Shown here: piece by piece, positions 3,719 through 22,304 of the stretch
Numbering within the stretch: the stretch's first letter is position 1
Layout of the letters: each line of letters starts with the position of its first letter
Source: Parvularcula maris
GTDB taxonomy: Bacteria; Pseudomonadota; Alphaproteobacteria; Caulobacterales; Parvularculaceae
Reading direction: 5' to 3'
DNA length: 64,000 nucleotides
Assembly: GCF_024505085.1 (NCBI RefSeq)
Contig: NZ_JANIBC010000003.1
Coordinates: forward strand, 146,504-210,503
The notes under the pieces: generated by a model
Seen by the model: only the letters and a program-made list of their open reading frames with translations
The model's database searches: none
What the model was told of the DNA's origin: nothing
Program-made: the position numbers and the translations under genes

Positions 3719-3872
3719 GCCTCCCTCTCCTGCCCCGCGGGAGAGGGACCGAGGGTGAGGGGCTTCTGAGCGCAGGTGTCCATGGCACGCGCTGTAGAAC
3801 GGCTTCGCCGAGGCCCTCACCCAAAGCCTGCTACGCAGCCGTTGACCTCTCCCGCAGGCGGGAGAGGTGGGC
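3719..3872. repeat. Family A composite palindromic repeat (copy A1, inverted)
   Basis: Two hairpin arms flank a short spacer. One arm is CCTCTCC-loop-GGAGAGG followed by CGAGGGTGAGG. The other is GCCCTCACCC, a variable hairpin, then CCTCTCCCG-CGGGAGAGG. The spacer, read on the minus strand, contains CGGCGAAGCCGT and ACCTGCGCTCAGAA, both found again in copy A2 at 5690-5844. It fills most of the gap between the S10 peptidase and DUF6624 genes. Confidence 0.85.
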
Positions 3873-5689: not shown

Positions 5690-5844
5690 ACCTCTCCCGT
5701 TCACGGGAGAGGTCAAAACCTGGCATTGTCAGGTTTTGGGTGAGGGGATCGGCGAAGCCGTCCTGCCACACTTGTTCTGAGACCTGCGCTCAGAACCCCC
5801 CTCACCCTCGGTCCCTCTCCCGCAGGCGGGAGAGGGAGGCGGTA
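5690..5844. repeat. Family A composite palindromic repeat (copy A2)
   Basis: The left arm is CCTCTCCCG-loop-CGGGAGAGG, then TCAAAACCTG-loop-CAGGTTTTG and GGTGAGGGG. The spacer begins ATCGGCGAAGCCGT and ends ACCTGCGCTCAGAACC. The right arm is CCCTCACCCTCGG then TCCCTCTCCCG-loop-CGGGAGAGGGA and GGCGGTAC. The structure matches A6 at 22092-22304 and, inverted, A1. The rest of 5558-5689 holds no recognisable gene or motif. Confidence 0.87.
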
Positions 5845-5905
5845 CCTGCGGAACCTTCGAACTGAGAAACTACCGAACCGGGGAGGCTGACCTCGGTGCC
5901 TAGAA

Positions 5906-5960
5906 GGCCCTCACCCGAAGCCTGCTTAGGCAGGCTCAACCTCTCCCGGTGGGAGAGGTG
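5906..5960. repeat. Family A solitary arm (copy A3)
   Basis: A single inverted left arm: GCCCTCACCC, the variable hairpin AGCCTGC-TTAG-GCAGGCT, then CAACCTCTCCCGGTGGGAGAGGT split into its conserved hairpin. It ends ten bases before the stop of pgeF, so it may also shape the 3' end of that operon mRNA. Confidence 0.75.
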
Positions 5961-18670: not shown

Positions 18671-18793
18671 CCCCTCTCCCCAAATCAATAGATTTGGACC
18701 TCTCCCCAGGGAGAGGTTTTGCGTGCTGCTCTAACCACTTGCGCTTTCCCTCTCCCTTGGGAGAGGTCGACATCTTCGATGTCGGGAGAGGGG
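18671..18793. repeat. A-type composite palindrome upstream of DUF559 gene (copy A4)
   Basis: Arm 1: CCCTCTCCCC, hairpin AAATC-AATA-GATTT, GGACCTCTCCCCAGGGAGAGG. A 30-base spacer follows. Arm 2 is inverted: CCCTCTCCC-TTGGGAGAGGT, hairpin CGACATC-TTC-GATGTCG, GGAGAGGGG. The final GGAGAGGGG ends one base before the DUF559 ATG at 18795 and serves as its likely ribosome-binding site. Confidence 0.87.
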
Positions 18794-18794
18794 C

Positions 18795-19253
18795 ATGGCT
18801 TCTCAGTTGGAATTTGCGCGGAAGCTCAGGCGAAAGCAGACCGATGCCGAGCGGAAGATCTGGGCGCAGCTTCGCCGCAATCAGACAGGGGTGAAGTTCA
18901 AACGTCAGGTGCCGGTGGGACCTTTCATCGTCGATTTTGCATGTGAGACATTGAAAATCGCGGTCGAGGTCGATGGCTCGCAACATGCCGAGGAACGGGC
19001 GGACTACGACCGGCAGCGGACCAGATGGCTGGAAGAACGAGACTGGACCGTTGTCCGTGTTTGGAACCGCGAGGCGCTGCTGAATACGGAAGGCGTCATG
19101 GAGGGGATCAGAGTTCTCGTGGCCGATCTTCTGCCCCTCTCCCCAAACTACTGCCGTAGTTTGGACCTCTCCCGAGGGAGAGGTTGTGGCGCCCCACCTC
19201 TCCCTCGGGAGAGGTCCAAATCTCAGATTTGGGGAGAGGGAAACCCTCAATGA
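18795..19253 (+). CDS. DUF559 (Vsr-like PD-(D/E)XK) endonuclease-domain protein
   Basis: 152 aa. Residues ~5-112 form a DUF559 domain related to very-short-patch-repair endonucleases. [20 protein letters not shown] and [16 protein letters not shown] lead to the catalytic-looking D47, E58 and D60 (IVDF...AVEVDGSQH), then DWTVVRVWN. Substrate unknown. Residues 113-152 ([20 protein letters not shown] and on) are encoded by the flanking palindromic repeat, so the gene appears to have read through into it. The gene splits pdxJ from acpS and overlaps the acpS start (ATGA). GC is visibly lower than its neighbours. Probably an acquired gene. Confidence 0.9.
19134..19240. repeat. A-type composite palindrome inside the 3' end of the DUF559 gene (copy A5)
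   Basis: Arm 1: CCCTCTCCCC, hairpin AAACTACTG-CC-GTAGTTT, GGACCTCTCCCGAGGGAGAGG. Short spacer TTGTGGCGCCCCA. Arm 2 inverted: CCTCTCCCTCGGGAGAGG, TCC hairpin AAATC-TCA-GATTT, GGGGAGAGGG. It mirrors A4 on the other side of the nuclease domain. It is translated as the DUF559 C-terminal tail and ends nine bases before the acpS ATG. Confidence 0.87.
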
Positions 19254-22091: not shown

Positions 22092-22304
22092 TACCTCTCC
22101 CGCCTGCGGGAGAGGTCAAAACCTGACGAAGACAGGTTTTGGGTGAGGGGATCGGCGAAGCCGTACTGCTCCATCTGCTGCTGCCGCAGCCTCAGTCTTC
22201 TCCGGTTCGAAAGGGTCCCTCAAACTTTTTCGTTTGCTGTGCAAACCACCTGCGAAGCCCCCTCACCCTCGGTCCCTCTCCCCCTCGGGGAGAGGGAGGC
22301 GGTA
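22092..22304. repeat. Family A composite palindromic repeat (copy A6) with nested insert
   Basis: Left arm CCTCTCCCG-loop-CGGGAGAGG, TCAAAACCTG-loop-CAGGTTTTG, GGTGAGGGG, spacer start ATCGGCGAAGCCGTACTGC, right arm CCCTCACCCTCGGTCCCTCTCC ending GGCGGTAC (arm quoted in part). Compared with A2 the spacer is longer by a block around 22205-22258 (GAAAGGGTCCCTC ... ACCTGCGAAG) that also resembles an insert in B2 at 31573-31620. Confidence 0.85.

What the first reader, a model, noticed from the sequence alone, without database searches (positions are those of the whole stretch)
18671..19253. DUF559 nuclease gene boxed in by, and partly made of, A-type palindromic repeats
Two composite palindromes (18671-18793 and 19134-19240) bracket a Vsr-like nuclease domain. 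The upstream unit supplies its ribosome-binding site. The downstream unit encodes its last 40 residues and leads straight into acpS. The same repeat architecture (CCTCTCCC hairpin plus variable hairpin) is scattered in at least four other gaps in this window. The geometry is like REP repeats with their RAYT transposase, but with a PD-(D/E)XK nuclease instead of an HUH enzyme. I infer a possible nuclease-driven, non-autonomous repeat system: the DUF559 protein may nick or resolve the hairpins and so spread them.
Basis: partly seen in the sequence, partly recalled or inferred. Interest (0 to 1): 0.82.

Follow-up and report, generated by a model that had tools for sequence, protein, structure and literature searches.

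The report
Nuclease gene bracketed by its repeats
A small gene for a probable DNA-cutting enzyme (DUF559) sits between hairpin-forming DNA repeats here and in most other places looked at, and the repeats vary in step with the enzyme, which suggests that this enzyme is the missing partner that keeps or spreads a common family of bacterial repeats.

Summary
A DUF559 (Vsr-like PD-(D/E)XK) gene at 18795-19253 lies between two composite palindromes. The pattern is not local. In genomes of the same family, 32 of 32 sampled DUF559 loci have a strong hairpin within 300 bp on at least one side and 19 on both; for PIN genes of the same genome set it is 9 and 1 of 29. In 80 named loci, hairpins are roughly 20 times denser beside the gene than farther out. 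Three further results tie enzyme to repeat. Repeat 'dialects' follow DUF559 clades even among several nucleases of one genome (6 changes on the tree; permutation minimum 12). Genomes with an A-dialect DUF559 tend to carry dispersed A-type hairpins; those with only other dialects mostly do not. In 189 genomes of the class, 32 of 46 with DUF559 have 3 or more such hairpins against 6 of 143 without. The repeat has the plan of E. coli's orphan BoxC/intrastrand-triplex motif; in two E. coli records exact copies (two and one) follow ycjD, a DUF559 gene. Best reading: an analogue of REP-RAYT made from unrelated parts. Cutting, copying and movement were not shown.

The parts
18671..18793 (.). Upstream composite: two repeat units in inverted orientation (about 18671-18717 and 18749-18793), each a conserved CCTCTCCC-GGGAGAGG hairpin, a variable hairpin and a C-rich or G-rich tract; the second unit ends one base before the ATG
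   Evidence: DNA fold z = -9.05; both units resemble Rfam whalefall-1 below its gathering score
18795..19253 (+). DUF559 nuclease ORF, 152 aa; domain residues 4-107 (about 18804-19115); the last 39 residues are encoded by the downstream repeat
   Evidence: PF04480 3e-34
19134..19240 (.). Downstream composite: two repeat units in inverted orientation (about 19134-19184 and 19196-19240)
   Evidence: DNA fold z = -10.99; both units resemble whalefall-1 below its gathering score
17828..18664 (+). pdxJ, upstream neighbour
   Evidence: PF03740
19250..19666 (+). acpS, downstream neighbour; its start overlaps the DUF559 stop (ATGA)
   Evidence: PF01648
3724..3867 (.). Dispersed gene-less pair of repeat units with an inner spacer (MITE-like); the first hairpin has one mismatch
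5691..5958 (.). Dispersed repeat units (three exact hairpins)
22094..22295 (.). Dispersed pair of repeat units (two exact hairpins)

Best explanation
DUF559 (YcjD-like) nucleases and the hairpin/triplex repeats around their genes are one co-evolving system, an analogue of the REP-RAYT system made from unrelated parts. The gene sits between copies of its own repeat, mostly inverted. The same repeat, without the gene, is dispersed through the genome as single units and as pairs, in the window's genome mostly 102-128 bp apart. SHOWN statistically: the bracketing, the agreement of repeat dialect with nuclease clade within genomes, the agreement between a genome's nuclease dialect and the dispersed A-type core, and near-invariant nuclease-core residues. 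INFERRED: the nuclease recognises its cognate repeat as a hairpin, cruciform or intrastrand triplex, probably in single-stranded DNA at replication forks, and nicks it; repair or priming from the nick then copies the short unit, or a pair of units, elsewhere in trans, while the nuclease gene stays at low copy number (1-4 per DUF559-bearing genome in the family tree set).
For: Bracketing: family sample 32 of 32 loci with a hairpin (stem 9 or more) within 300 bp on at least one side, 19 on both; class sample 28 of 30 and 13; PIN control 9 and 1 of 29; distal windows 3 of 61 and 0 of 58 (PIN loci 5 of 57). Named loci: 5.73 hairpins/kb within 150 bp, 0.25-0.36/kb beyond 300 bp; of 75 loci long enough, 46 both sides, 21 one, 8 none. 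Co-evolution: 66 domains from 38 family genomes; hand labels 11 changes against a shuffled mean of 40.3, and 10 (one unlabelled row left out) against a within-genome permutation minimum of 20, mean 27.4, of 300; rule-based labels (61 rows) 6 against minimum 12, mean 23.3, of 300. Specificity: CCTCTCCC hairpins in 21 genomes with an A dialect against 13 with only B/C/D, p = 3e-5; with copies at the genes themselves taken off, p = 4e-4. Abundance: 32 of 46 against 6 of 143 genomes with 3 or more hairpins, p = 2e-19; genomes of 3 Mb or more 26 of 34 against 2 of 45; same-family contrasts 8 for, 1 against, one-sided p = 0.02, with 3 ties (hand tallies). Orientation: tail of the nearest unit towards the gene 171, away 70, undecided 24; distal control 34, 28, 7. 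Residues E19, D47 and E58 in 171 of 171 domains, D60 in 170, H64 in 168; nearest solved chains are 3HRL and the mobile-intron protein 3R3P. Y1/HUH transposase matches in only 12 of 62 family genomes.
Against: No cleavage, binding or movement was shown, and no target-site duplication or clean insertion boundary was found: the empty sites compared are too diverged or hold other genes. Some repeat-rich genomes show no full DUF559 (G066 18, G205 15; G003 13, 72% complete, partial match; G035 22 B-type, 84% complete). 10 of 46 DUF559 genomes have no exact CCTCTCCC hairpin, and 3 of 21 A-dialect genomes have none beyond their own gene flanks. The B-type core is also frequent in A2-dialect genomes, so one nuclease to one repeat is not strict. 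Two close tandem nucleases in G011 have different flanking dialects. Three divergent DUF559 genes have no such repeats (L259-L261). A label-free k-mer test is weak (rho 0.145, 1 of 500 within-genome permutations as high; different genera rho 0.096, 10 of 500). The inward orientation is a preference only. The abundance p-values ignore relatedness. A Caulobacter DUF559 protein (VsrA) is linked to repair at methylated sites, another role.
Confidence: 0.62

Rival explanations
1. Homing reading: DUF559 is a free-standing homing-type nuclease. It cuts repeats that already exist, and its gene is copied into them by recombination between repeats, so the repeats are its landing sites and not its product.
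For: The second PDB match is the mobile-intron protein 3R3P, E = 8e-4. The gene lies between repeat units whose tails mostly face it. DUF559 genes with repeats occur in unrelated operon gaps: carA-carB and ruvC-ruvA, each in two different taxonomic families, and murB-ddl.
Against: The pdxJ-acpS sites of 29 relatives have no such repeats, so no pre-existing landing repeat is seen there. Homing should give many near-identical nuclease copies per genome; the family set has 1-4 per genome, often of different dialects, although the deficit of same-dialect pairs is not significant (5 of 38, expected 7.9, P = 0.16).
Confidence: 0.17
2. Housekeeping reading: repeats come first. DUF559 is a structure-resolving or mismatch-type nuclease that clears hairpins or triplexes, and genomes with many repeats keep it.
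For: Correlation of repeats with DUF559. Vsr-like family (PMC1189080, passages). Caulobacter VsrA (PMC12907096, passages).
Against: Does not explain why the gene itself lies between units of the matching dialect, nor the sharp fall of hairpin density beyond 300 bp.
Confidence: 0.12
3. Local regulation: the palindromes act as terminators or translation blocks that keep a toxic nuclease at low level; the dispersed copies are unrelated.
For: The upstream unit reaches to one base before the ATG. Hairpins often stand on both sides.
Against: The genome-wide number of the matching type goes with the nuclease dialect even after the gene's own flanks are taken off.
Confidence: 0.06
4. Coincidence of sites: small mobile genes and repeats both collect in tolerant intergenic gaps.
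For: The same gaps hold other sequence, apparently small genes, in relatives (read by eye).
Against: The PIN control of the same genome set gives 9 of 29 (one side or more) and 1 of 29 (both), against 32 of 32 and 19 of 32. Dialects follow nuclease clades within genomes.
Confidence: 0.03

Closest known systems
REP/BIME repeats with RAYT (REP-associated tyrosine transposase), Nunvar et al. 2010, PMC2817692 (passages read)
   Same: Enzyme gene flanked by inverted palindromic repeats; enzyme and repeat co-evolve; presence of the enzyme goes with the number of its cognate repeats; repeats also occur in pairs.
   Different: The enzyme is a PD-(D/E)XK Vsr-like protein, not a Y1/HUH transposase; no GTAG head (4 of 381 hairpins have GTAG within 10 bp of an end, background 167 of 5,726 places); the unit is a hairpin plus tail, often with a second variable hairpin.
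BoxC / PIT / TMECO intrastrand-triplex repeats (Holder et al. 2015, PMC4666352; passages and part 1 of 2 of the Discussion read)
   Same: Same unit plan: CCCTCNCCC - GGGNGAGGG hairpin followed by a GGGNGAGGG tract; dispersed, intergenic, variable between E. coli strains. Exact matches to the TMECO consensus lie downstream of ycjD in L268 (two) and L274 (one).
   Different: Described without an enzyme; the paper reports no mobility genes at the sites, and its main text has no occurrence of DUF559, ycjD or endonuclease. Units in the window carry an extra variable hairpin.
EDxHD homing endonucleases (that 3R3P belongs to this family is recalled)
   Same: Detectable sequence relation of the DUF559 profile to 3R3P, 'mobile intron protein' (E = 8e-4).
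   Different: No intron or intein was seen here; the gene is bracketed by dispersed repeats.
Caulobacter VsrA (DUF559), PMC12907096 (passages)
   Same: Same protein family.
   Different: Proposed role is repair of T:G mismatches at methylated sites; 'palindrom' does not occur in the main text; its flanks were not examined here.
Rfam whalefall-1 (RF01762)
   Same: All four units in the window resemble it (26.5-31.1 bits).
   Different: Below the gathering score of 37; described as an RNA found only in environmental sequences (PMC2864571, passages).

Membership tests
DUF559 (PF04480) | Profile match above the curated cut-off | tested here: met
   117.6 bits against 20.6
DUF559 (PF04480) | Conserved acidic and His residues of the nuclease core | tested here: met
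   E19, D47, E58, D60, H64 in 168-171 of 171 domains, and present in the window's protein; catalysis itself not tested
REP-RAYT | Y1/HUH tyrosine transposase encoded between the repeats | tested here: not met
   The bracketed gene is DUF559; Y1_Tnp matches in 12 of 62 family genomes, one weak partial match in G000
REP-RAYT | GTAG head on the repeat | tested here: not met
   4 of 381 hairpins at DUF559 genes have GTAG/CTAC within 10 bp of an end; background 167 of 5,726. GTGG, the other form of the head, was not counted
REP-RAYT | Enzyme gene flanked by inverted repeats | tested here: met
   orientation 171 against 70, so a preference and not a rule
REP-RAYT | Enzyme-repeat co-evolution and enzyme-repeat copy-number correlation | tested here: met
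BoxC/TMECO repeats | CCCTCNCCC N3-6 GGGNGAGGG N3 GGGNGAGGG | tested here: not met
   Met beside ycjD in E. coli. In the window the third tract is separated by a variable hairpin: same plan, not the strict consensus
BoxC/TMECO repeats | Forms an intrastrand triplex | not testable with these tools
   needs CD or NMR
Autonomous IS-like element | Target-site duplication or precise empty site | tested here: inconclusive
   pdxJ-acpS and G038/G039 comparisons too diverged
Whalefall-1 RNA | Score at or above the gathering threshold | tested here: not met
   best 31.1 bits against 37 in the window

The most novel reading that the evidence does not exclude
A widespread class of nuclease-driven repeats: a lone Vsr-like nuclease domain of roughly 105 residues, with no transposase or recombinase, recognises its own hairpin/triplex repeat and copies it around the chromosome. 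This would account for BoxC-type repeats across Pseudomonadota, Cyanobacteriota and Deinococcota. Enzyme and repeat evolve as matched pairs, several pairs can share one genome, and the repeat families of a species are set by which DUF559 clades it carries.
Probability: 0.45. Interest if true: 0.93.

Novelty: new variant of a known kind. Interest (0 to 1): 0.84.

Why it matters
Holder et al. (PMC4666352) report G/C-rich triplex repeats of the BoxC kind in more than 260 prokaryotes, variable between E. coli strains, with no mobility genes found at the E. coli sites. If DUF559 is their enzyme, that open question becomes directly testable in a laboratory strain with one small gene, ycjD. It would also give a function to a common 'unknown function' nuclease family, offer matched nuclease-repeat pairs for studying how folded DNA is recognised, and show that the REP-RAYT way of life arose more than once from unrelated enzymes.

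Tried and rejected
RAYT or another Y1 transposase as the driver: rejected for this family of genomes, matches in only 12 of 62 (10 over the cut-off). Structured RNA as the main reading: the Rfam matches are below threshold, most others miRNA models that fit any long hairpin. Target-site duplication: no result. 'One nuclease per dialect per genome' as a rule: not significant (P = 0.16). Strict specificity of the B core: not upheld, A2 genomes also carry it. Azospirillum plasmids as a source of empty sites: all 7 Azospirillum records cover the whole query, so none is empty. E. coli strains without ycjD as clean empty sites: in the three fetched, sapF is followed by efflux genes; fabI is not within the stretches seen, so no boundary could be read.

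Literature: ten searches. No title, abstract start or passage that I saw links DUF559/YcjD to repeats. The 14 papers that hold 'DUF559' were seen as a listing; other listings were capped (15 of 498, 15 of 42,161). Passages read: PMC12907096, PMC3733652, PMC4666352 (also part of its Discussion), PMC10888264, PMC1189080, PMC2817692, PMC2864571. PMC12306157 was not read (one search failed). Subscription papers are mostly missing from that library.

The rules were written after I had seen the tree; they differ from the hand labels in 7 of 66 rows, listed there. Per-genome counts and the size and same-family tallies were typed. Rows dropped: in the class test DUF559 matches under 90 bits count as 'without' and G000 is left out; in the dialect test G057-G060 (no label, or E only) are left out and G003 and G024 (partial or degenerate DUF559) count as 'without'; L254, L262 and L263 gave no domain and are not in the tree; five rows had no label; one search leaves out the two L025 rows. 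Loci fetched by the genome search are the best-scoring matches, not a random draw.

Full report
WHAT IS THERE. The window's DUF559 ORF (18795-19253, PF04480 3e-34) lies between pdxJ and acpS. It is enclosed by two composite palindromes that fold far better than shuffles (z = -9.05 and -10.99). Each composite is a pair of units in inverted orientation. A unit is a conserved hairpin (CCTCTCCC nn GGGAGAGG), a second hairpin whose sequence varies between units while its pairing is kept, and a C-rich or G-rich tract. The last unit before the gene ends one base short of the ATG. The composite after the domain encodes the C-terminal 39 residues, and the stop overlaps the acpS start. The genome (3.19 Mb, 48 contigs) has 147 exact hairpins of this core and none of the reversed control. 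Among the 50 places listed of these 147, 15 consecutive gaps are under 300 bp, 13 of them 102-128 bp, while the next gap is 2,694 bp. So gene-less pairs are common, and several share an inner core.

IT IS GENERAL. The genome has three DUF559 genes, and all three have hairpins on both sides, of three different sequence types. In the taxonomic family 40 of 62 genomes have a DUF559 match. Of 32 sampled loci (the best-scoring ones) all have a hairpin (perfect stem of 9 or more, loop up to 15) within 300 bp on at least one side, and 19 on both; 30 loci of 30 genomes drawn from the class give 28 and 13. The control, PIN-domain genes of the same 62-genome set, gives 9 and 1 of 29. Windows 700-1000 bp away give 3 of 61 and 0 of 58 (5 of 57 around PIN), and loci with shuffled bases 2 of 32. 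Hairpin density is 5.73/kb within 150 bp, 1.42 at 150-300 bp and 0.25-0.36 beyond; of 75 loci with enough flank, 46 have both sides, 21 one, 8 none. Of 44 plasmid records with a match I fetched 12; 6 of these are from Deinococcus and Cyanobacteria, and 5 of the 6 have a stem of 8 or more within about 115 bp of the ORF ends (both sides in three), while the sixth shows only imperfect ones by eye.

THE REPEAT FOLLOWS THE NUCLEASE. I collected the DUF559 genes of the family (66 domains from 38 genomes) and sorted their flanking hairpins into dialects (A1, A2, B, C, D, E). On a protein tree the dialects need 11 changes against a shuffled mean of 40.3. Fifteen genomes carry more than one label, so I shuffled labels only within genomes: 10 changes against a minimum of 20 in 300 permutations. 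With rule-based labels (61 rows) it is 6 against a minimum of 12 and a mean of 23.3; these rules were written after the tree was seen, the hand labels before. The tree has only 102 columns, and 17 of 63 inner branches are open. A label-free k-mer comparison points the same way but weakly. The clear exception is a tandem pair in G011 with mixed dialects.

THE DISPERSED COPIES FOLLOW IT TOO. Counts of the A core: 21 genomes with an A-dialect nuclease range from 0 to 147; 13 genomes with only B, C or D have 0 in nine and at most 7; p = 3e-5. After subtracting copies at the genes themselves p = 4e-4, and B/C/D-only genomes do not differ from the 24 counted as without DUF559 (p = 0.47). The reverse test with a B core is also positive (B against A1/C/D-only p = 0.0015; 0.009 after subtraction), but A2 genomes share that core. 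In the class, 32 of 46 genomes with DUF559 (90 bits or more) have 3 or more A hairpins against 6 of 143 without (p = 2e-19). Restricting to genomes of 3 Mb or more gives 26 of 34 against 2 of 45, and contrasts inside taxonomic families give 8 for, 1 against, 3 ties (tallied by hand). These p-values, except the contrasts, ignore relatedness.

EMPTY SITES. AcpS was found in 57 of 62 genomes and 30 loci were returned, one of them the window's own. In the other 29, pdxJ lies beside acpS, and neither DUF559 nor the CCTCTCCC hairpin is found in the locus; in five same-genus genomes the two genes overlap by one base in the alignment. So gene and repeats probably arrived together here. Boundaries and target duplications could not be read.

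ORIENTATION AND SITES. The tail of the nearest unit faces the gene in 171 cases, away in 70, undecided in 24; distal control 34, 28 and 7. The inward-facing layout is a preference. DUF559 with its repeats was found between carA and carB and between ruvC and ruvA, each in two different taxonomic families, and between murB and ddl.

THE PROTEIN. E19, D47 and E58 are invariant in 171 domains, D60 is kept in 170 and H64 in 168, so the nuclease core is under constraint. The PDB holds a DUF559-like protein (3HRL, 1e-35), and the next match is a mobile-intron protein (3R3P, 8e-4). YcjD was already placed near Vsr (PMC1189080, passages).

LINK TO A KNOWN ORPHAN REPEAT. E. coli BoxC/TMECO has the consensus CCCTCNCCC N3-6 GGGNGAGGG N3 GGGNGAGGG (PMC4666352). 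In E. coli, ycjD (DUF559) lies between sapF and fabI. One record (L268) has two exact TMECO matches after ycjD and another (L274) one; upstream of ycjD is a long palindrome of another type. The locus is polymorphic: 3,333 of 5,426 genomes hold at least 80% of the query. That paper reports no mobility genes at these repeats, and its main text does not mention ycjD or DUF559.

HOW IT MOST LIKELY WORKS. I take it as an analogue of REP-RAYT: the nuclease reads its own repeat as a folded strand and nicks it, and repair copies the unit elsewhere. The bracketing, pairing and copy-number links are shown by statistics; recognition, cutting and copying are inferred. The homing and the repeat-clearing readings remain open.

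JUDGEMENT. By descent it is not a REP-RAYT member (no HUH enzyme, no GTAG head), but it is built like one. I did not find it in print within the searches listed under Tried and rejected.

Noticed in passing
window 18671-18719, 18746-18793, 19134-19186, 19194-19241; L022, L038, L240: Repeat units resemble Rfam whalefall-1 RNA (26.5-33.6 bits, gathering 37). That environmental 'RNA' may be one of these DNA repeats.
   Followed up: partly
L275, L276, L277 (E. coli): In three E. coli strains without ycjD at this site, sapF is followed by multidrug-efflux genes, with a long palindrome at the junction.
   Followed up: partly
L087, L090; L079, L107; L092; L093; L080: DUF559 with its repeats sits in conserved operon gaps: carA-carB (two families), ruvC-ruvA (two families), murB-ddl; also after glyQ and before a DNA polymerase III alpha gene (glyS itself not confirmed).
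   Followed up: partly
L118-L120, L142; G039 at the site of L032: The same pdxJ-acpS and G038/G039 gaps hold other sequence, apparently small genes, in relatives, as if these gaps accept many inserts.
   Followed up: no
L259, L260, L261: Three divergent DUF559 genes of the window's genus have no flanking repeats; they may have another role.
   Followed up: no
window 3724-3867; L007, L009, L015: Gene-less pairs share a conserved inner core between two outer hairpins, a MITE-like composite of about 145 bp.
   Followed up: partly
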